Source: Erysipelotrichaceae bacterium RD49 (GTDB taxonomy: Bacteria; Bacillota_I; Bacilli_A; Erysipelotrichales; Erysipelotrichaceae). Taken from it: 39,961 nucleotides of DNA. Of this stretch, positions 1,434 through 32,033 are shown one piece after another. How positions within the stretch are numbered: the first letter of the stretch is position 1; each line of letters begins with the position of its first letter. Below the pieces are notes generated by a model that saw only the letters and a list, made by a program, of their open reading frames with translations, searched no databases and was not told the origin of the DNA. Position numbers and translations under genes: made by a program. Location of the stretch: contig JADGIS010000005.1 of NCBI GenBank assembly GCA_015233825.1, positions 1-39,961 of the forward strand. Reading direction: 5' to 3'.

Positions 1434-2144
1434 CTAGCCAACTAAGTCTTTCATGGTATAGAAACCAGCTGGCTTATCCTGCATGAATTCGGCTGCTTCA
1501 ATAGCTCCGTTGACAAAGATCTGTCTGGAATTGGCATTGTGCATCAGAACCAGTTCTTCATCAGGTCCAAAGAAACTGACTTCATGCCGGCCGGCCATAT
1601 TGCCCCCACGCAGGGCATGAATGCCAATTTCTTTTTCGCGCACGCCTGTACGGCCGCTGCGGCCATAAACTTTCTTAAATTCATCATTGGGATCAACGGC
1701 TTCCACTAAAGCTAAAGCTGTACCGCTTGGAGCGTCTATTTTTTGGTTGTGGTGGGTTTCAACGATTTCAATATCCCATTTGTCCTTCAAAATCTCGCTG
1801 GCTTTGGCGGCAAGCGCTGTGAGCAGGGCAATGCCCAGCGAGTAGTTGGCGGCAAAGAAGACCGGATTGGTCTTGGCCAGCTCATGAAGAGATTCTTTTT
1901 GCTCATTGGTAAAACCGGTGGTTCCTTCGACCAACGCGATGGGTTTATTGGCGATGGCTTGCTCTACCCAGCCCAGATTATCGGGATGGGAGAAATCCAG
2001 GACGAGATCCACCTGGTCGAGATTGTCTAACAGACCGGCCTGGTCAAACGCATCTACATTGGCTAGTACGGTATGGCCATGGCTTTGGGCAGTGGTTTTG
2101 AGCAGCTGGCCCATGCGGCCTTTGCCTACGATAACGATATTCAT
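1434..2144 (-). CDS. dapB: 4-hydroxy-tetrahydrodipicolinate reductase
   Basis: DapB reduces the dapA product to tetrahydrodipicolinate with NAD(P)H. The 236-aa protein opens with the Rossmann motif GKGRMGQ. It carries the family signature around ETHHNQKIDAPSGTA, which supplies the substrate-binding His and Lys residues, and has EGTTGF in the substrate pocket. Its length is slightly below the usual 240-270 aa but all domains are present. The ATG overlaps the dapA stop codon by 4 nt, which indicates translational coupling. Confidence 0.96.
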   Translation of the reverse strand: MNIVIVGKGRMGQLLKTTAQSHGHTVLANVDAFDQAGLLDNLDQVDLVLDFSHPDNLGWVEQAIANKPIALVEGTTGFTNEQKESLHELAKTNPVFFAANYSLGIALLTALAAKASEILKDKWDIEIVETHHNQKIDAPSGTALALVEAVDPNDEFKKVYGRSGRTGVREKEIGIHALRGGNMAGRHEVSFFGPDEELVLMHNANSRQIFVNGAIEAAEFMQDKPAGFYTMKDLVG

Positions 2145-3028
2145 TCCACAAGCCCCTTTTCCTGGAGGGAATTATACAGTTTCTGGCGGTGAGCCGGTTC
2201 CATTTCAAAAAGCGGCAGGCGGTATTTGCCCACTTCCATGCCCATCATGTTCATGGCTTCTTTGATTGGGATTGGATTGACTTCGATAAATAAATTATGA
2301 ATCACATCGAGCAGATCCAGCTGCAAAGCACGAGCTGCAGGATAGTTGCCATCCAGGCAGTTCTGGGCGATTTGGTGGGTTTCTTCGGGCAGAATGTTGG
2401 CCAGAACGGAGATTACGCCCGAAGAGCCCAGCGACATCATTGGCACGATAATATCGTCGTTGCCTGAATACATCACAAAGTCATCGTTTAAAAACCGGGC
2501 GACATCAGTGGCATAGGATAAGTTGCCGCTGGCTTCTTTGATCCCCTGGATCATTGGGTGCTTGGACAGGCGGCCGACAGCGTTAACGGAAATAGAGCAG
2601 CCTGTGCGTCCAGGAATGTTATAAAGAATAATGGGGATATTGACGGCATCGGCTACCGTTGTAAAATGATGGACCATGCCTTCGTTATTGGCTTTGTTGT
2701 AGTAAGGCGAGATCAAAAGCAGGCCGTCGGCTCCCATATTCTGGTATTTTAAAGCTTTTTCTAACTGGGTCTGGGTACAGTTCGAGCCAGCGCCGACGAT
2801 GATTGGAATGCGGTGATCTGCCGTGGCGATGGCACAAGCCACAACAGCGTCATCTTCTTCATGGGACATGGTAGAGGATTCACCGGTTGTTCCTAACACC
2901 AGCAGACCATCCGTTCCATGATCGATATGCCAGTTGATCAGCTCCCGCAGTTTTTTGAAGTTGACGGTTCCATCACTGTGGAATGGAGTAATTAAAGCAA
3001 CGATTGATCCTTTTGGCAGGTTAGTCAT
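2141..3028 (-). CDS. dapA: 4-hydroxy-tetrahydrodipicolinate synthase
   Basis: DapA condenses pyruvate with aspartate semialdehyde, the first committed step to DAP and lysine. The 295-aa product has the family's usual length and TIM-barrel motifs. GTTGESSTM near residue 45 binds the pyruvate carboxylate, YNIPGRTG carries the catalytic Tyr, and GIKEASGN carries the Schiff-base Lys. It overlaps dapF upstream by 8 nt and dapB downstream by 4 nt. Confidence 0.97.
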   Translation of the reverse strand: MTNLPKGSIVALITPFHSDGTVNFKKLRELINWHIDHGTDGLLVLGTTGESSTMSHEEDDAVVACAIATADHRIPIIVGAGSNCTQTQLEKALKYQNMGADGLLLISPYYNKANNEGMVHHFTTVADAVNIPIILYNIPGRTGCSISVNAVGRLSKHPMIQGIKEASGNLSYATDVARFLNDDFVMYSGNDDIIVPMMSLGSSGVISVLANILPEETHQIAQNCLDGNYPAARALQLDLLDVIHNLFIEVNPIPIKEAMNMMGMEVGKYRLPLFEMEPAHRQKLYNSLQEKGLVE

Positions 3029-3836
3029 ATTCGTATTCTCCTTCGATGATTTTTTGGGCGGGGCCGGTCATGAAGACATGGTCATCGGCTCCAATTTCAA
3101 TTTCAAGATTTGCTTTTTTAAGCTGGACTGCAGTATGGGCGTTTGCTTTGCCCAGAGCATGGGCTGCATAGGCACTGGCACACACCCCAGTGCCGCAGGC
3201 TAAAGTCACCCCGCAGCCGCGCTCATAAGTCTGGACTTTTAAATGGTCCGCATCCTGTACTTCGACAAAATTTACATTGGTCTGCTCTTTAAACAAAGGA
3301 TGATGGCAGATCTTTTTTCCGACTTCTTCAATCTCGCCAAGCGCATCCTCGCAAAATAAGACCGTATGGACGGTGGACATAAAGAAGCTGTAGATCGTGT
3401 AAGTCTCGCCATCAATTTCCAAGGGGTAGGCCCAGATTTTCTTCTCGGTTCCAATCAGCTCCGGTTCCCATTTCGGGGTTCCCATATCCACCTGGACTTG
3501 AAAGGGATCGGTGCTTAAAACCGTGATGATCTTTTCACCGGCTAGAGTCTGGACTGGATAGGGATTAGGCAGATCAAAGCCATGATCAGAGCAGTATCTG
3601 GCAAAGCAGCGAATGCCATTGCCGCACATCGGGGCTCTCGAGCCGTCCTGGTTGTAGTAGACCATTTCCAAAGGATCGGTTTTGACAGCAATCAATCCAT
3701 CTGCCCCGATCCCGGTATGTCGGTCGCACACCTTGACGGTAAAATCGATGGGATCGGCTAAAGAAGCAAAGATCTGGTAGTCGAGCATGATAAAGTCGTT
3801 GCCGGCTCCATGATATTTACACACAGGCACTCTCAT
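3021..3836 (-). CDS. dapF: diaminopimelate epimerase
   Basis: DapF interconverts LL- and meso-diaminopimelate. The 271-aa protein carries both halves of the two-base catalytic site, Cys in MCGNGIRC and Cys in ACGTGVCASA, together with the N-terminal GAGNDF motif. Both catalytic cysteines are intact, so it should be active. It overlaps lysA upstream and dapA downstream by a few bases, in the middle of the lysine operon. Confidence 0.97.
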   Translation of the reverse strand: MRVPVCKYHGAGNDFIMLDYQIFASLADPIDFTVKVCDRHTGIGADGLIAVKTDPLEMVYYNQDGSRAPMCGNGIRCFARYCSDHGFDLPNPYPVQTLAGEKIITVLSTDPFQVQVDMGTPKWEPELIGTEKKIWAYPLEIDGETYTIYSFFMSTVHTVLFCEDALGEIEEVGKKICHHPLFKEQTNVNFVEVQDADHLKVQTYERGCGVTLACGTGVCASAYAAHALGKANAHTAVQLKKANLEIEIGADDHVFMTGPAQKIIEGEYEYD

Positions 3837-5146
3837 TGTACTTCCTCCACTTCCAGCAGTTCGCGTTCGATCAGCTCGTTCAGGCTTTGCGGTTTAATGG
3901 CCCAATAGATTTTGCCATCCTTGACAAAGACTACACCGGCAAAGGGAAGCTTGTTATAGTTGCTGGCCATCGAATAGCCATACGCACCGGTCGAGTGAAC
4001 GAGCAGCAGGTCGCCGCTTTGATAGGGCTGAATGGTAATCTCACTTCCCAGCAGGTCACCGCTTTCGCAGCATTTGCCTGCAATCGTAACGGTTTCGGTC
4101 TTGGCTGCATCCATATTGGTTGCAACATCAAATTCGTAATCTGCCTGGTAGAGCGCCGGGCGGATATTATCGGTCATGCCGCCATCGATAAAGATGTACT
4201 TGCGGTTTTGGGTTTCCTTTAAAAAGCCGATTTCATAAAGCTGATAGCCGGCTTCAGCCACAATCGAGCGGCCCGGCTCAATACAGATTGAATCAAAGGC
4301 CAAATTCAAGCGTTCTTTTTCAGCTTCAGCTTGGCTGATTACTGCTTTGCAGATTTGCTCAATTGCCACCGGTTTGTCGGCATCCGTATACCACACCCCA
4401 AAGCCGCCGCCAAAGTCGAGGGTTCTGGTCACAAATCCGAACTGTTCTTCAAACGTTTTGGCAAATTCGCAGACTTTCGTGATCTCGGCCAGAAACGCTT
4501 CCTGCTCAAAGATCTGCGAGCCGATATGGGCATGAAAGCCATCAAATGAGATGCCGGCTTGGCTGAGGGTTTGGACGATCTGAGCGATTTCATCCATTTT
4601 TAAAATCGAGATGCCAAACTTAGAATCCACATAAGCGGTTTGAATGTATTGATGGGTATGGGCTTCAATCCCTGGGTTAATGCGCAGCAAAGTGTTGACG
4701 CGGCAAGATTGGTATTCAGGTTTCTGGACGAGAAAAGCCAATAGTTCGGCTTCCATCAGGTTATCGACAATGATCGTGCCAACTTTAAGCTTTAAAGCCA
4801 TTTCCAGTTCTTTGCGGGATTTGTTATTGCCATGAAAGTAAACGTTCTTTAAATCAAAACCAGCCTTATAGGCGGTATACAGTTCGCCCGCGCTGACCAC
4901 ATCCAGGGCTAAACCATGTTTCTGGCACAGTTTATAAACAGCCAGGCATGAAAAGGCCTTGCTGGCATAGAGAACGGATGTCTGCAGTGTATCGCTTTTA
5001 AAACTGGATACAAATTCGGCCATACGTTCTTCCAAAGCGTTTTGATCATAAATATAAAGCGGTGTGCCGCAGGATGAGGCTAGCTTGCGAACACCAACCC
5101 CGCCGATTACAGCCTGACCGTCTCGGATTTCAATTGCATTGTGCAT
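3833..5146 (-). CDS. lysA: diaminopimelate decarboxylase
   Basis: LysA decarboxylates meso-DAP to L-lysine using PLP. The 437-aa product is a fold-type III decarboxylase. The PLP Lys lies in YASKAFS. HGNNKS, HIGSQIF, the glycine-rich GGGFG and EPGRSIVAEAG complete the cofactor site, and CCESGD carries the second-subunit Cys. The start follows GGAGG by 6 nt. It is the first gene of the operon, directly behind a riboswitch-controlled terminator, so lysine availability should set expression of the whole operon. Confidence 0.97.
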   Translation of the reverse strand: MHNAIEIRDGQAVIGGVGVRKLASSCGTPLYIYDQNALEERMAEFVSSFKSDTLQTSVLYASKAFSCLAVYKLCQKHGLALDVVSAGELYTAYKAGFDLKNVYFHGNNKSRKELEMALKLKVGTIIVDNLMEAELLAFLVQKPEYQSCRVNTLLRINPGIEAHTHQYIQTAYVDSKFGISILKMDEIAQIVQTLSQAGISFDGFHAHIGSQIFEQEAFLAEITKVCEFAKTFEEQFGFVTRTLDFGGGFGVWYTDADKPVAIEQICKAVISQAEAEKERLNLAFDSICIEPGRSIVAEAGYQLYEIGFLKETQNRKYIFIDGGMTDNIRPALYQADYEFDVATNMDAAKTETVTIAGKCCESGDLLGSEITIQPYQSGDLLLVHSTGAYGYSMASNYNKLPFAGVVFVKDGKIYWAIKPQSLNELIERELLEVEEVQ

Positions 5147-5501: not shown

Positions 5502-5531
5502 AAAAAAAGCCAGACCTTTATAGAGCCTGGC
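5502..5531 (-). terminator. terminator after GTPase-NYN gene
   Basis: On the minus strand GCCAGGC and GTCTGGC form a 7-bp stem with a 9-nt loop, followed by seven T residues. It lies 113 bp past the fusion gene stop codon and separates that unit from the lysine operon. Confidence 0.8.
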
Positions 5532-5643
5532 CAAATCAGTGAAAATGAATCTTTTCTTGAAACAATTGAATTCAAAATCCAGCAAGCAGTTGGAGGATAG
5601 TGAAAATGAATCCTCAATCGATGACCAATCCCGCCGCCATGGC

Positions 5644-8148
5644 TCAGCGAACCGTTTTGAGATCCTCAAAGGCTCTGGCGTTGACGCTTTTGACCATTCC
5701 TTCGAGCTCACGTGCCGAAATACGGCGGGCACCATGCGAGAGCACCGAGTTTTGAATTAAGGCATCACTGGTGGCCGCGATGCATTCAAATTTGCCCCGC
5801 AGATCGTGAACTTTCTTTTCAATATAGCTGTCCGCTGTCATTCCCGCAGGTGTATAGACGATCGAAGAAGAACCATTGCGCGTGCTGGATCCATGGCTGC
5901 CTTTATGCCGTGTGCCGTCAAAAACGATAATCATCGACCAGCCGCGGTAGCCCTGGTAATTCACCAGCATGCTGATGAGTTCTTCGCGTGCTGAGTGAAG
6001 CGACTTGGCAGCCAGTGTTTTGAGTTCTGGCCAGGAGTAAATCATATTGTAGCCGTCGACCAGCAGGCAGATCGGCAGATGGGAAAAGTTTTTAACACTC
6101 ACTGGCTCTAAAGAAAGATCAGTCCGTTTTTTCTTGGCTGGAGCTTTCTTTTCATTGCGGTTGGCCCCGCCCGCATAGCCAAATGCCCGGCGCAGTTCTT
6201 CATCGCTGACTTTGCCGGAGTTAACCGAATAGCTGGAAATGGAATCACGGGTATCAACCGGAATGTGAAGATGATCCTCAACCTCATCCCAGTCTACGAT
6301 TGTGCCGCTGCCATTGGAGCAAAAAACAGAAGCGGCTGGATTGCGGCGGTCCAAAGCGGGATCATACCCAATCTGGGCGATGATGGTTTCGCTATCCTGG
6401 CAGACATCATAGCCGCTTGTTTCAGCAGCAAACGAGGCGGTACCTTTGGAAGCACGGGCAAGCTCCTCTTGGAAATTGAGCAGCGTCCGCACCGGCCCGC
6501 GGCCATTGATAGCCACGGATCCATTTTCCTGTTCATTGACTTCAACCGAGGCCTTGCGCAGGTCAAGCTGGTAAAGCACTTTGGAAAGATGTTCGGCCGG
6601 AACGTGGATTTCAAAGGCAAAATAGGGTTCCAGCAGAATGTTTTCAGCCTTCATCAACCCTTGACGCACGGCTCTTTGGGCAGCCTGGCGAAAATCACCG
6701 CCTGATGTATGTTTTTGATGGGCGCGGCCATTGACCAGCGTAATCTTGACATCGGTGAGCTGTGAGCGGGTTAAAACCCCAGGGATTTTCCAATCGGCCA
6801 GAGCCGATAAAATCAATCGCTGCCAGTTGAGGGAAAGAATGTCGCGCGGCAGTTTGGATGACAAGGTCACCCCGGAATTGCGCTTTCCTGGTTCGAGCAG
6901 CAGATGGACTTCCGCATAATGGCGCAAGGGTTCAAAATGGCCATACCCAAAGACGCTGTCGCCGATTGTTTCTTTATAGACAATCTGGCCCGGTCCGAAT
7001 TCGACATGAAACCCGGATTTTTCCAGAATCTTCTTTTTTAAAACTTCCTTTTGGATGCTTCCCATCAAGTGAATCGAGATGGTCTGGGTCTGCTCATTGA
7101 ATTCGACTTGCAAAGAAGGGTCTTCCATCATTAATACTTTCATCCAGCCCATCATCTGCACGGCGTCTACTCCATCAGGCAGAATCAGATCGTAATACAA
7201 AGCAGGGGATAATAAGGCTTTGGGTTTATCCATTTCAAAACCAAGACCATCGCCAGGAGCAAGATCTTTCAATCCCTTCACGGAAACGACCTCGCCGGCT
7301 TTGGCTTCGGACACAGATTGAAATCCTTTGCCTTGATACAGGCGGATCTGGTCAACCTTCTGGTCATTGATGATTTCCTTGGCTTTAAGGGTTCCGCCGG
7401 TTATTTTGAGGTGGACAATCGGCATTGAGGTTTCATCAGCTGTCACTTTAAAAACTCTTGCACCAAATTCAGATGGATAGTCTTTGGGCAGGCTAAAGCG
7501 TACCAGAGCATCAAGCAGTTCCTTGATGCCCTCATTTTTAAGAGCGGAGCCAAACAAAACCGGAAAGACTTTGCGATCCATCACGGCTTGCGCCATGGAA
7601 TGGGCGGATAAAGTTTCCGTTTCAATAAATTCATTGAGCAGATCTTCATCCAGCAAGGCAAACTGTTCAATCCAGTCTTCGGCCTGAAGATCAACAATCC
7701 GCTCATCTAACGTGTGTAAAGAAGCGATGAGTTCTTCTTTGGACAAGTGGGCAGCATCCATCTTGTTGACAAAAAGAAGAGCTGGGATTTGATAGGCATC
7801 CAGACATTTCCAAATCGTCCGCGTATGGGACTGGACACCATCCAGGGCGCTGACCAGTACGATGGCCATATCCAGAACAGACAGAGAGCGTTCCATTTCG
7901 GCAGAAAAGTCGGCATGGCCAGGCGTATCGATCAGATTGATGCGCGTATCGTTCCAGACCAAACCAGCTTGCTTGGAATAAATCGTGATCCCACGGGCAC
8001 GCTCCATTTCGTCATAGTCCAAAAACGCATCCTGATGGTCGACGCGGCCGGCTTTTTTGAGAACACCAGCATCGACAAGCATGCTTTCAATACAAGTTGT
8101 TTTCCCCGCATCGACATGGGCTAAAATCCCGGTGGTTAAAGTTCTCAT
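5644..8148 (-). CDS. TetM-like ribosome-associated GTPase fused to a Rae1/YacP-type NYN nuclease
   Basis: The 834-aa product joins two modules. Residues 1-~650 form an EF-G/TetM-type translational GTPase, with P-loop AHVDAGKTT (10-18), RGIT switch (52-55), DTPGHADF (74-81) and NKMD (128-131), followed by EF-G-like domains II to V. Residues ~660-680 are a basic linker (EKKAPAKKKR). Residues ~690-825 match YacP/Rae1-type NYN (PIN-like) nucleases, with acidic residues in LVDGYNMI (D698), VFDGT (D744), TADSYIEK (D773) and ATSDA (D795). Rae1 of Bacillus subtilis cuts mRNA in the ribosomal A site, so the fusion would place a nuclease on a factor that binds the same site; this role is inferred. In domain IV, HQKHTSGGDFR stands where TetM has its drug-dislodging YSPVS loop, so tetracycline protection is doubtful. 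It overlaps the upstream phosphatase gene by 4 nt. Confidence 0.88.
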   Translation of the reverse strand: MRTLTTGILAHVDAGKTTCIESMLVDAGVLKKAGRVDHQDAFLDYDEMERARGITIYSKQAGLVWNDTRINLIDTPGHADFSAEMERSLSVLDMAIVLVSALDGVQSHTRTIWKCLDAYQIPALLFVNKMDAAHLSKEELIASLHTLDERIVDLQAEDWIEQFALLDEDLLNEFIETETLSAHSMAQAVMDRKVFPVLFGSALKNEGIKELLDALVRFSLPKDYPSEFGARVFKVTADETSMPIVHLKITGGTLKAKEIINDQKVDQIRLYQGKGFQSVSEAKAGEVVSVKGLKDLAPGDGLGFEMDKPKALLSPALYYDLILPDGVDAVQMMGWMKVLMMEDPSLQVEFNEQTQTISIHLMGSIQKEVLKKKILEKSGFHVEFGPGQIVYKETIGDSVFGYGHFEPLRHYAEVHLLLEPGKRNSGVTLSSKLPRDILSLNWQRLILSALADWKIPGVLTRSQLTDVKITLVNGRAHQKHTSGGDFRQAAQRAVRQGLMKAENILLEPYFAFEIHVPAEHLSKVLYQLDLRKASVEVNEQENGSVAINGRGPVRTLLNFQEELARASKGTASFAAETSGYDVCQDSETIIAQIGYDPALDRRNPAASVFCSNGSGTIVDWDEVEDHLHIPVDTRDSISSYSVNSGKVSDEELRRAFGYAGGANRNEKKAPAKKKRTDLSLEPVSVKNFSHLPICLLVDGYNMIYSWPELKTLAAKSLHSAREELISMLVNYQGYRGWSMIIVFDGTRHKGSHGSSTRNGSSSIVYTPAGMTADSYIEKKVHDLRGKFECIAATSDALIQNSVLSHGARRISARELEGMVKSVNARAFEDLKTVR

Positions 8149-8840
8149 TCTTTCGAATCAGATGGTCTGCATCCCGAGCAGATCCACCGCTCTGATTTCA
8201 TTTCTTTTCGCTCTTTTTCCAGCTCTGGAATCGACTTCTCCAGCTGTTCTAGTTCAAATTCGTCAAGCGCTTTAAGCCTGTCTGATTTTTGTTTCGGGAA
8301 GTCGTAAACGCGGACTTCACAGTTTTTCATAAAGAAGGTCCGAAAGTCATCATTGGATAACCCATTGAAGTAGGCTTCAATAATGCGGGCAATGCCGCCA
8401 TGAGTCGTGATGAGAATATTCTCCCGTCTGGTCTTTTTGGATTCTTTGGTCAGGTCGTCCAAAAAGTGATAGACACGGGCCGCTACATCTAAATACGATT
8501 CGCCGTTTTCAAAGGGCATAAAGTACTCTTTCTTTTCGGCTTGATAGGTTTCATCTTCACGCCTGATCCCTTCGAAAATGCCGAAGTTCTGTTCGATCAG
8601 CCGCTTGTCGACTAAAATCGGGGCCGGATTGGTTTGAAAGCGGCAGACAGCCTGCGCGGTTTGATAGGCGCGCTTTAAAGGGGAAGAGTAAATCGCATCA
8701 AAATGAACGCCGCCAAGCTTAATTCCGGCTGTATCGGCCTGATGAAAACCGGTAGAATCCAGGGGCAGATCACTGCGGCCTAAAACATGGTTGATTTTAT
8801 TGCGGCTGGTCTGGCCATGCCGCATGACATAAAGTTTCAT
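8145..8840 (-). CDS. histidine phosphatase family protein (phosphoglycerate mutase-like)
   Basis: The 231-aa protein begins MKLYVMRHGQTSRN, the RHG motif whose His is phosphorylated in this superfamily. It has PLKRAYQTA for the second phosphate-binding Arg, an acidic catalytic region near residues 85-95, and TTHGGI with the second active-site His. The substrate cannot be told from sequence; CobC/PhoE/GpmB-like annotations are common for this type. A ~60-residue C-terminal extension rich in Glu and Lys ends with a CSGC. The start is preceded by AAAGGA. It is first in a two-gene unit with the GTPase-NYN fusion, overlapping it by 4 nt. Confidence 0.88.
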   Translation of the reverse strand: MKLYVMRHGQTSRNKINHVLGRSDLPLDSTGFHQADTAGIKLGGVHFDAIYSSPLKRAYQTAQAVCRFQTNPAPILVDKRLIEQNFGIFEGIRREDETYQAEKKEYFMPFENGESYLDVAARVYHFLDDLTKESKKTRRENILITTHGGIARIIEAYFNGLSNDDFRTFFMKNCEVRVYDFPKQKSDRLKALDEFELEQLEKSIPELEKERKEMKSERWICSGCRPSDSKE

Positions 8841-21786: not shown

Positions 21787-23172
21787 TTGAAGTCACATCA
21801 AAATTCAGCCGGCATTGCCGCGGCATGGAATGTCGCGGATGCCAGCAGCGTGGTCTACTATCTGCTGCATGGCTTGCAGCACCGCGGCTCGGACAGCGCC
21901 GGCATTGCCAGCGCTGATGGCCAAAATGTTCAAGTGCATAAGCGCTTTGGCATGCTTGCAGAAAGCTTTAATGCCAATCGCCTTGCTGAACTTGGCGGCC
22001 AGTATGCGCTCGGTCAAGTGCGGATGGCTACCGACAGCGATATTGGAACCGCCAACCTGCAGCCCATGATGGTGCGGGCTCATCAAGGATCATTTGCGAT
22101 CGCCACAACGGGCATGATTTCCAATGCCCCCAGCCTGCGCAAGCATATGGAAGCAGATGGCTTGATTTTCCAAGGGACATCAGATGCGGAAGTGATCACC
22201 CATCTGATCCAGATGGCGCCGGGCAAACTGGTCAATAAAATTGAAACGGCCTGCCAGATTTTAAAAGGCCCTTATGCCTTTATCCTGATGACCCGCCACA
22301 CTATGTATGCGGTGGTCAGCCGCCTGGCAATCAGCCAGCTTTACTATGTGCCTTACCAGGATGGTTATTTGTTTGCTTCCGAAACTTCGGCGTTCGGCAT
22401 GTTTGATGTAGGGGAGCCGATCGCTATTGAACCTGGCCAGATGATTTTTCTAGGGCGCCATGGCTTTACAACCCGCCAGATGGATGTGGGAGCCAAATAT
22501 CCCTGCGCGATGGAAGCAGTCTACTATTCCAGGGAAGATTCGCTCTTCCAGAATCAATCGGTGCATAAAGCCCGCCAGAAACTGGGAGCTGCTTTAGCGA
22601 AAGGCGAAGATGTCCAAGCCGATATCGTCATCGGTGTTCCGGATACGGCGATTTCAGCTGCCACTGCTTTTGCCAGAGAATTGAAGATTCCCTATGAAAT
22701 CGGCTTGATTAAAAACCGCTACGTTGGATCCACCTTTGTACGCCCCATCAAGGAGCAGAAAGAAAACGAGATTCAAACCAGGCTCAATGCGATCAGCTCG
22801 ATTGTCAAAGGAAAATCCGTCTTTTTGGTTGATGACTCAATTCAAAAAGGCAAAACGGCCGCTTACCTTTGCCGGTTATTAAAAGAAGCAGGGGCGAGGG
22901 AAGTTCATTTGCGCATTGCTTCACCGAGGATTGACCATTCCTGTTTTTATGGAACGGAATATATTCCCCGCCAAGAGCTTGCAGCAGCCAATTATGAGCT
23001 GGAAGAGATGAAAGAAATCTTCCATGCCGATTCCTTACGCTTTTTGAAACTGGAAGATTTTGAAGCCGTGCTGGGCGATTCGATGTGCACCGCCTGCATG
23101 AGCGGCCGGTATTTTGGCAAGCTTTATGATTATGAATTCAGAAAGGAAAACGAAAATGGCAGATCAATATAG
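21787..23172 (+). CDS. PurF-like protein with inactivated glutaminase site
   Basis: This 461-aa protein aligns end to end with amidophosphoribosyltransferase (QHRGSDSAGIA, FQGTSDAEVI, VIGVPDTAISAA, FLVDDSI) but has lost the glutaminase residues. Ala8 stands where the N-terminal Cys nucleophile belongs (NSAGIAAAW against EECGVFGAY). The oxyanion HNG is TTG (107-109). RYS is RMA. The conserved GLRPL is AISQL. In the phosphoribosyltransferase half the PRPP motif is DDSIQKGKT instead of DDSIVRGTT. The four cysteines that bind the 4Fe-4S cluster in Bacillus-type PurF are retained (C240, C386, C434, C437). The start is a TTG after AAGGAG; an in-frame stop two codons earlier excludes a longer N-terminus with a Cys. 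It occupies the purF position of the operon, between purL and purM. Role unknown: regulatory subunit, ammonia-dependent enzyme or new reaction. Confidence 0.88.
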   Translation: MKSHQNSAGIAAAWNVADASSVVYYLLHGLQHRGSDSAGIASADGQNVQVHKRFGMLAESFNANRLAELGGQYALGQVRMATDSDIGTANLQPMMVRAHQGSFAIATTGMISNAPSLRKHMEADGLIFQGTSDAEVITHLIQMAPGKLVNKIETACQILKGPYAFILMTRHTMYAVVSRLAISQLYYVPYQDGYLFASETSAFGMFDVGEPIAIEPGQMIFLGRHGFTTRQMDVGAKYPCAMEAVYYSREDSLFQNQSVHKARQKLGAALAKGEDVQADIVIGVPDTAISAATAFARELKIPYEIGLIKNRYVGSTFVRPIKEQKENEIQTRLNAISSIVKGKSVFLVDDSIQKGKTAAYLCRLLKEAGAREVHLRIASPRIDHSCFYGTEYIPRQELAAANYELEEMKEIFHADSLRFLKLEDFEAVLGDSMCTACMSGRYFGKLYDYEFRKENENGRSI

Positions 23173-30647: not shown

Positions 30648-32033
30648 ATGTTTGATGAACTTCATGAAGAGTGCGGGGTCTTTGGAGCCTACCACGTCGA
30701 CGATGCAGCCTTCAGCGTCTATTACGGACTTCATTCCCTGCAGCACAGAGGTCAGGAAGCCAGCGGGATTGCGGTCTATCAAGATCACCAGATTGAAACC
30801 CAGAAAGGCAAAGGGTTGACGATTGATGTCTTCAACCGCCAGGATCTTGAACACATGAAAGGCGAGACGGCGATTGGCCACGTCCGCTATTCAACAGCTG
30901 GGGGGCAGGAGGTTGAAAATATTCAGCCAATTGTTGCCCATGGCCACTCGGGCTCCATTGCGATCGTTCACAATGGTCAGATTGTCAACGATCTCGAATT
31001 GCGCATTGAGCTTGAACAGAAGGGCTGCATCTTTCAAGGCACCAGCGATTCGGAAATTATCCTGCATATGATCATGAAAGAGCGGGGAAGCCTGCTGGAG
31101 CGGGTTCAGAAAACAGCCAGGCAGCTGGAAGGAGCGTTTTCCTTTCTGGTTTTGCAAGATGATGTCATCATCGCAGTCAGAGATCAATATGGTTTGCGGC
31201 CTTTAAGCTATGCGCGAAGCGGCGATGGCTATATTATCTCTTCGGAAACCTGTGCCTTTGAAGTGCAGGGCATCTATGATCATATCGATGTCAAACCAGG
31301 AGAAGCTGTCAGCTTCAGCCGCGGCCTGGTCCGCCATCATCGTTATATCGATCAGCCCGAGTCGAATATGTGTGCGATGGAATATATTTATTTTGCCAGA
31401 CCTGATTCGCAGATTGAATCGATCAATGTCCATGCCTTTCGCAAGGAAACCGGCAAAATGCTGGCGCGGATGGACAAAGATCTCAAGGCGGATCTTGTCA
31501 TTGGCGTACCCGATTCTTCGCTTTCCGCAGCGATCGGGTATGCCGAAGAAAGTGGCACGATTATGGAAAGCGGCTTAGTCAAAAACCGCTTTGTCACCCG
31601 GACATTTATTCAGCCTACCCAGTCTTTGCGCGACCGTGGCGTGCGGATGAAGCTGACGCCCGTTCGGGATGTCATTGAAGGCAAGTCCATTGTCATGATC
31701 GACGATTCCATTGTCCGGGGCACTACCTCCCGCCGCATTGTTTCCTTATTGAAAGAAGCCGGCGCCAAAGAAGTCCATGTTCGGATTGCTTCACCGATCA
31801 TTACCTCTCCCTGCTTCTATGGCGTCGATACAAGCACCAAAAAAGAACTGATTGGGGCCAACAAAAGCGTAGAAGAAATCCGTGACTATATTCAAGCGGA
31901 TTCACTTAAATTTATGAGCTGCCAGGATTTGCAAAAAGCAGCTGGCAGTGTTGGTTTATGTACGGCTTGCTTTGACGGCAAGTATTGTTCGCCTTTATTC
32001 AGTCATGAAAAAAGCGCCAGAGGCGAAGAATAA
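30648..32033 (+). CDS. purF: amidophosphoribosyltransferase
   Basis: PurF makes 5-phosphoribosylamine from PRPP and glutamine, the first committed purine step. The 461-aa protein is canonical. It has an 8-residue propeptide before Cys9 (EECGVFGAY), Arg80 in HVRYST, Asn109-Gly110 in HNGQIVN, GLRPLS, and the PRPP motif DDSIVRGTT. Cysteines 242, 389, 438 and 441 match the 4Fe-4S ligands of Bacillus-type PurF. It lies outside the main purine operon, downstream of corA, in its own unit; an inactivated paralogue holds its place in the operon. AGGAGA precedes the start by a slightly long spacer. Confidence 0.96.
   Translation: MFDELHEECGVFGAYHVDDAAFSVYYGLHSLQHRGQEASGIAVYQDHQIETQKGKGLTIDVFNRQDLEHMKGETAIGHVRYSTAGGQEVENIQPIVAHGHSGSIAIVHNGQIVNDLELRIELEQKGCIFQGTSDSEIILHMIMKERGSLLERVQKTARQLEGAFSFLVLQDDVIIAVRDQYGLRPLSYARSGDGYIISSETCAFEVQGIYDHIDVKPGEAVSFSRGLVRHHRYIDQPESNMCAMEYIYFARPDSQIESINVHAFRKETGKMLARMDKDLKADLVIGVPDSSLSAAIGYAEESGTIMESGLVKNRFVTRTFIQPTQSLRDRGVRMKLTPVRDVIEGKSIVMIDDSIVRGTTSRRIVSLLKEAGAKEVHVRIASPIITSPCFYGVDTSTKKELIGANKSVEEIRDYIQADSLKFMSCQDLQKAAGSVGLCTACFDGKYCSPLFSHEKSARGEE

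What the first reader, a model, noticed from the sequence alone, without database searches (positions are those of the whole stretch)
5644..8148. TetM-like translational GTPase fused to a Rae1/YacP-type NYN nuclease
A single 834-aa frame joins a complete EF-G/TetM-like factor to an NYN domain closely resembling Rae1, which in Bacillus subtilis cleaves mRNA in the ribosomal A site. Four acidic residues at expected NYN positions (D698, D744, D773, D795) are present, so the nuclease looks intact. The domain IV loop that TetM uses to eject tetracycline is replaced by HQKHTSGG. The fusion suggests a ribosome-targeted mRNA cleavage or stalled-ribosome rescue factor powered by GTP, rather than a drug-resistance protein. 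I cannot say from here whether this architecture has been described.
Basis: partly seen in the sequence, partly recalled or inferred. Interest (0 to 1): 0.8.

Follow-up and report, generated by a model that had tools for sequence, protein, structure and literature searches.

The report
Translation GTPase fused to mRNA-cutting nuclease
A gut bacterium has a single protein that joins a ribosome-binding GTPase, a cousin of the tetracycline-resistance protein TetM, to an intact copy of the Rae1 nuclease that cuts messenger RNA inside the ribosome; the fusion was noted in passing in 2015, its function has not been tested, and here it looks like the lineage's replacement for Rae1 rather than a drug-resistance gene.

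Summary
In detail: window 5644-8148, minus strand, one 834-aa frame, with EF-G domains I-V, a folded C-terminal extension, a disordered linker and a Rae1-like NYN domain. It is not a sequencing artefact: the same architecture recurs across Erysipelotrichales and Clostridia, including in complete genomes. The architecture is not new. Atkinson 2015 (PMC4342817) reported Tet proteins with a YacP-like NYN domain in ten Clostridiales species and guessed at a resistance mechanism.

New here: (1) The GTPase part is not a TetM-type protector. It belongs to a separate subfamily, fused and unfused, with its own near-invariant domain IV tip and C-terminal extension. (2) The fusion most likely arose once. 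(3) In 291 Clostridia genomes I classified 104 with the fused protein and 55 with standalone Rae1, and none with both; the window's own genome has no other NYN_YacP. (4) All four catalytic-type Asp are kept. (5) In one related genus the GTPase is dismantled stepwise while linker and nuclease survive.

Best explanation: a ribosome-directed mRNA endonuclease that replaces Rae1, with the GTPase module delivering or timing it on ribosomes with an open A site; tmRNA would rescue the cut complexes. No biochemistry exists; tetracycline protection is unlikely but untested.

The parts
5644..8148 (-). Whole gene, 834-aa GTPase-NYN fusion protein
7498..8148 (-). G domain (residues 1-217); P-loop AHVDAGKTT, RGITI, DTPGH, NKMD and GSALK all intact
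7243..7467 (-). Domain II (228-302)
6994..7167 (-). Domain III (328-385)
6643..6990 (-). Domain IV (387-502)
6907..6942 (-). Domain IV loop I GHFEPLRHYAEV (403-414), subfamily hallmark; differs from EF-G and TetM
6691..6723 (-). Domain IV loop III AHQKHTSGGDF (476-486), subfamily hallmark; TetM has YYSPVSTPADF here
6394..6636 (-). Domain V / EFG_C (505-585)
6259..6393 (-). Subfamily-specific C-terminal extension (586-630), NPxxSVFCxxGxG..V.WDEV..xxH; unfused members end here; predicted folded
6079..6258 (-). Linker (631-690), predicted disordered at 634-688
6181..6213 (-). Conserved short helix in the linker, KVSDEELRRAF (646-656); kept even in NYN-only relatives
5647..6078 (-). Rae1/YacP-type NYN nuclease domain (691-834)
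6055..6057 (-). D698 (Rae1 D7)
5917..5919 (-). D744 (Rae1 D53)
5830..5832 (-). D773 (Rae1 D81)
5764..5766 (-). D795 (Rae1 D104)
8145..8840 (-). Upstream histidine-phosphatase-like gene overlapping the fusion by ATGA (probably translationally coupled); adjacency seen only in Allobaculum among the loci checked
5508..5532 (-). Terminator-like hairpin plus T-run after the fusion, before lysA; suggests a two-gene transcript
   Evidence: consensus match only

Best explanation
The protein is a ribosome-directed mRNA endonuclease that takes the place of standalone Rae1. The EF-G/Tet-like GTPase module (domains I-V plus its own C-terminal extension) binds the factor site of ribosomes whose A site is free or stalled. 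The 60-residue flexible linker lets the Rae1-like NYN domain reach and cut the mRNA in or next to the A site, probably after GTP hydrolysis when domain IV has moved out, because domain IV and NYN cannot sit in the A site together. tmRNA would then rescue the truncated complex. Shown by sequence: intact GTPase motifs, intact Rae1 active-site residues and predicted fold, a single origin of the fusion (best-supported tree), mutual exclusion with Rae1, presence of tmRNA. Inferred: ribosome binding, A-site cleavage, order of events, GTP gating.
For: All G motifs and the EF-G domain order are intact. NYN matches B. subtilis Rae1 by sequence (E 3e-21) and by predicted fold (5mq8/5mq9 the only hits under 1e-3, TM about 0.8). 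Four Asp invariant. The own genome has one NYN_YacP, the fusion. In 291 Clostridia, 104 genomes classified fused, 55 standalone, 0 both; about 20 expected if independent. Fused proteins form one clade in the GTPase tree, and Rae1s form one clade in the NYN tree. In genus g4, two species have lost domains IV-V and two have lost the whole GTPase, yet linker helix and NYN with all Asp remain: the nuclease outlives the rest. tmRNA present. [quoted passage not shown]
Against: No experiment on any family member was found. The NYN tail of the window protein lacks the basic C-terminal helix of Rae1 (19 against about 45 residues), a region where R166P behaves as loss of function in B. subtilis Rae1 (PMC6613710), so ribosome docking may differ. 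Unfused GTPases occur in six sampled Clostridia without any NYN and in L. salivarius, where NYN was lost, so the GTPase has a job of its own. Exclusion with Rae1 follows clades and is not many independent events.
Confidence: 0.58

Rival explanations
1. A tetracycline-protection protein with an added RNase domain (the 2015 guess): the GTPase removes the drug and NYN is accessory.
For: Best NCBIfam match is tet_protect; sister clade to RPPs in the tree; NCBI labels some members TetM/TetW/TetO/TetS family.
Against: 382.6 bits against the 775 cut-off, while a Tet(M) control scores 879.8. Both drug-contacting domain IV loops are replaced by another conserved set. TetM/O/W lie outside the subfamily clade. 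Single-copy chromosomal gene through most of the order, no mobile context in the window. The chromosomal tetM with proven activity in Bacillus toyonensis (PMC5209696) appears, from its published primers, to have classical TetM-like segments.
Confidence: 0.08
2. An rRNA or tRNA nuclease delivered to ribosomes: processing, ribosome quality control or stress shut-off rather than mRNA decay.
For: NYN domains were proposed to mature rRNA and tRNA (Anantharaman and Aravind, cited in PMC4342817); an EF-G-like body brings it to the ribosome; Foldseek also finds EF-G2-type factors.
Against: The NYN is specifically the YacP/Rae1 type, whose characterised member cuts mRNA in the A site, and it excludes Rae1 in genomes.
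Confidence: 0.17
3. Two functions in one polypeptide without mechanistic coupling: an alternative translation factor (back-translocation, unstalling or recycling) plus a passenger Rae1 that is tethered only for stoichiometry.
For: Unfused GTPases live without NYN in some genomes; NYN lives without the GTPase in genus g4; disordered linker.
Against: A single fusion event has been kept across two large groups, and the linker helix is conserved.
Confidence: 0.17

Closest known systems
Clostridial Tet proteins with a YacP-like NYN domain (Atkinson 2015, PMC4342817)
   Same: Same domain architecture; almost certainly the same family
   Different: There: one sentence, ten Clostridiales, taken as Tet resistance proteins. 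Here: more than two hundred genomes including Erysipelotrichales, a non-RPP subfamily, exclusion with Rae1
Rae1/YacP of Bacillus subtilis (5mq8, 5mq9)
   Same: NYN fold and all four Asp
   Different: Standalone, about 170 aa, with a basic C-terminal helix; no GTPase
TetM/TetO ribosomal protection proteins
   Same: EF-G-like five-domain body, about 28% identity over 580 residues
   Different: Domain IV loops I and III, C-terminal extension, clade; no NYN
EF-G (own genome, 707 aa, contig C273)
   Same: Domain order and G motifs
   Different: About 27-28% identity; loop I RQSGGKGQYGHV absent; no NYN
Unfused subfamily members in Clostridia and Paenibacillus
   Same: 37-43% identity to the window (Clostridia members); same domain IV tip and C-terminal extension
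   Different: End at the extension; no linker or NYN

Membership tests
TetM-type ribosomal protection protein | Score above the curated NCBIfam tet_protect cut-off (775 bits) | tested here: not met
   382.6 bits; Tet(M) control 879.8
TetM-type ribosomal protection protein | TetM-like domain IV loops that reach the drug site | tested here: not met
   EPLRHYAEV and HQKHTSGGDF in place of PPNPFWASI and YYSPVSTPADF
TetM-type ribosomal protection protein | Groups with TetM/O/W in a tree | tested here: not met
   RPPs and subfamily are separate clades, SH-aLRT 92 and 99
TetM-type ribosomal protection protein | Confers tetracycline resistance | not testable with these tools
   Needs a susceptibility assay
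Rae1/YacP NYN nuclease | NYN_YacP domain above the Pfam cut-off | tested here: met
   133.1 bits against 24.6
Rae1/YacP NYN nuclease | Conserved acidic active-site set | tested here: met
   D698, D744, D773, D795 = Rae1 D7, D53, D81, D104
Rae1/YacP NYN nuclease | Rae1 fold | tested here: met
   5mq8/5mq9 the only Foldseek hits under 1e-3
Rae1/YacP NYN nuclease | Basic C-terminal helix of standalone Rae1 | tested here: not met
   Tail 19 residues against 45, no LEKLRR-like end
Rae1/YacP NYN nuclease | Ribosome-dependent mRNA cleavage | not testable with these tools
   Needs biochemistry
EF2-family translational GTPase | Five EF-G domains and intact G1-G5 motifs with catalytic His | tested here: met
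Tet-NYN fusion of Atkinson 2015 | Tet-like EF-G body plus C-terminal YacP-like NYN | tested here: met
   their supplementary sequences could not be opened

The most novel reading that the evidence does not exclude
A GTP-gated A-site endonuclease: a translocase-like GTPase probes ribosomes, and only when it binds a vacant or stalled A site and hydrolyses GTP does its tethered Rae1 domain cut the mRNA, coupling stall recognition and mRNA cleavage in one protein. The conserved linker helix, kept in NYN-only relatives, would be a separate ribosome or partner docking element.
Probability: 0.27. Interest if true: 0.8.

Novelty: new member of a known kind. Interest (0 to 1): 0.52.

Why it matters
How Rae1 is recruited to particular ribosomes is an open question. 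A lineage-wide fusion that ties Rae1 to a translational GTPase, excludes free Rae1 and is naturally dismantled in known relatives gives a direct handle on it. It also shows that some proteins labelled TetM-family resistance determinants in gut bacteria are probably housekeeping translation and mRNA-decay factors, which matters for resistance-gene surveys.

Tried and rejected
Frameshift or junction artefact: rejected by conservation in complete genomes. Phage-defence gene: no PADLOC match. Operon function: the histidine-phosphatase neighbour is conserved only in Allobaculum among the loci checked, so context gives no functional clue. Apparent cases of fused plus standalone NYN: second hits in G697, G762 and G803 are sub-cut-off and another protein; G785 is most likely one fused gene split over two contig ends. 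Short NYN frames in the order: G100, G156 and G038 lie at contig ends, G045 is a frame break, only G144 and G134 are genuine NYN-only genes, and they nest with fused ones. Key Rae1 papers (Leroy 2017, Condon 2018) are not held, so whether they mention the fusion is unknown. pCW3, sought for TetB(P), is not in the collection. The position of NYN on the ribosome was not modelled; the pTM of the full model is only 0.59 with a disordered linker.

Full report
WHAT IS THERE. The finding is real and on the minus strand: one 834-aa ORF at 5644-8148. Pfam gives the full EF-G domain order followed by NYN_YacP, all above the curated cut-offs. AlphaFold2 on 20 window and GTDB homologues gives mean pLDDT 82, with only the linker at 634-688 disordered apart from a low-confidence helix at 649-659. 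The NYN domain folded alone has pLDDT 88, and its only PDB hits under 1e-3 are the B. subtilis Rae1 structures. The gene starts inside the stop codon of a histidine-phosphatase-like gene (ATGA overlap), and a terminator-like hairpin follows it.

THE HOST. The window lies in a 2.97-Mb, 99% complete assembly, in the same genus as G122. By size and matching coordinates G122 is the Allobaculum mucilyticum 128 chromosome. The genome has its own EF-G (707 aa) and other translational GTPases, a complete tmRNA, and only one NYN_YacP domain, the fusion.

HOW WIDESPREAD. In the order, 140 of 196 genomes carry NYN_YacP, nearly always as a single copy inside an 800-960-aa frame. The exceptions are contig ends, frame breaks or secondary reductions. 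Elsewhere in the phylum sample, the only above-cut-off matches outside the order are again long frames. In 291 Clostridia genomes, 188 pass the cut-off, as standalone genes of about 170-216 aa or as fusions of about 840-930 aa. Combining the NYN and GTPase scans, I could classify 55 standalone and 104 fused genomes, with no genome in both classes against about 20 expected; Fisher p is about 2e-12, but species are not independent and the printed lists were truncated. Eight genomes with standalone Rae1 also have an unfused GTPase of the same subfamily: the two halves exist as separate genes. Six have the unfused GTPase and no NYN.

A SUBFAMILY OF ITS OWN. Fused and unfused members share a domain IV tip unlike either EF-G or TetM: loop I GHFEPLRHYAEV and loop III HxKHTxGGDFRxAxxRAxRQGL. 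They also share a C-terminal extension with the pattern NPxxSVFCxHGxGxxVxWxEVxxxMH, which TetM, TetO and TetW lack. In the tree they form one clade (SH-aLRT 99) apart from the TetM/O/W/OtrA-like group. Inside it the fused proteins form a clade (98) that includes the NYN-less L. salivarius plasmid protein (a secondary loss) and one contig-truncated row; the unfused Clostridia proteins form the other branch (87). This fits one fusion event, though the quick tree has some open forks. In the NYN tree the standalone Rae1s, B. subtilis included, form a clade (100), with one exception, L084 from G804, near the fused Lachnospiraceae sequences.

IS THE NUCLEASE INTACT. D698, D744, D773 and D795 correspond to Rae1 D7, D53, D81 and D104 and do not vary, nor do Y700, N701 and T766; Q799 varies by one gap only. 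What the fusion has lost is the basic C-terminal helix that almost all standalone Rae1s keep (tail about 45 residues; 19 in the window; variable in fusions). R166P in that tail behaves as a loss-of-function mutation in B. subtilis (PMC6613710). I infer that the GTPase or the linker has taken over part of the docking.

A NATURAL DISSECTION. In genus g4 of the same family, five species have the full protein, two species have lost domain IV, domain V and the extension but keep the G domain, linker helix and NYN (603 and 615 aa), and two keep only the linker helix and NYN (211 and 226 aa). The active-site Asp are kept throughout. The nuclease is thus the most durable part, and the linker helix ([IV]SxEELxxVF and variants) is kept even without the GTPase. 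It is therefore unlikely to serve only to dock NYN on the GTPase. A strict form of this motif is found in 55 of 83 linkers against 5% of shuffled ones.

MECHANISM. [quoted passage not shown] An EF-G-like body is built to enter the same site. The two cannot occupy it together, so the simplest scheme is sequential: the GTPase binds and leaves or retracts, and the tethered NYN enters and cuts. The steps after sequence and fold are inference. Rivals are an rRNA/tRNA nuclease, loosely coupled dual functions, and tetracycline protection. The last is disfavoured by score, loops and tree. One chromosomal TetM-like protein with proven resistance activity, Btoyo_0322 (PMC5209696), does not appear to belong to this subfamily: its published qPCR primers translate to segments resembling the classical NAV...GWxVTDxKI region. 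That is indirect evidence.

KNOWN OR NEW. [quoted passage not shown] Further literature searches in the held library found nothing more on it. The architecture is therefore known. The distinct subfamily, the exclusion with Rae1, the single origin and the reductive series are added here.

Noticed in passing
window 21787-23172 (+) and 30648-32033 (+): Two PurF-like amidophosphoribosyltransferases about 7.5 kb apart; the first lacks the N-terminal CGVFG nucleophile cysteine (reads SAGIAAAW), the second has ECGVFG. The first may lack glutaminase activity.
   Followed up: no
L009, L019, L027 (BQKD01000001.1, Erysipelotrichaceae bacterium OPF54): Three copies of the fused gene, matching alike, exactly 71,006 bp apart: a 71-kb tandem triplication or an assembly artefact.
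   Followed up: no
L022 (NZ_CP078088.1, Allobaculum sp. Allo2): Fused gene and upstream histidine phosphatase are both broken into several frames in a complete genome; probably assembly indels.
   Followed up: partly
L171-L174 (genomes G144, G134, G099, G006): Stepwise loss of domains IV-V and then of the whole GTPase in one genus while linker helix and NYN persist.
   Followed up: yes
L111 2986-4920 (Ligilactobacillus salivarius plasmid pR1): NYN-less member nested in the fused clade and annotated as TetM/TetW/TetO/TetS; secondary loss of NYN.
   Followed up: partly
MT835563.1 and MT835514.1 (phage collection): Two unannotated faecal 'Bacteriophage sp.' records carry nearly the whole fused gene; perhaps bacterial DNA filed as phage.
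   Followed up: no
L199 1483-4284 (Agathobacter rectalis plasmid): 933-aa fused member named as a TetM/TetW/TetO/TetS tetracycline resistance protein in the record; a likely misannotation.
   Followed up: yes
L175 (G045) 1943-4078 and 4036-4515: GTPase and NYN in two overlapping frames; sequencing error, gene fission or frameshift not resolved.
   Followed up: no
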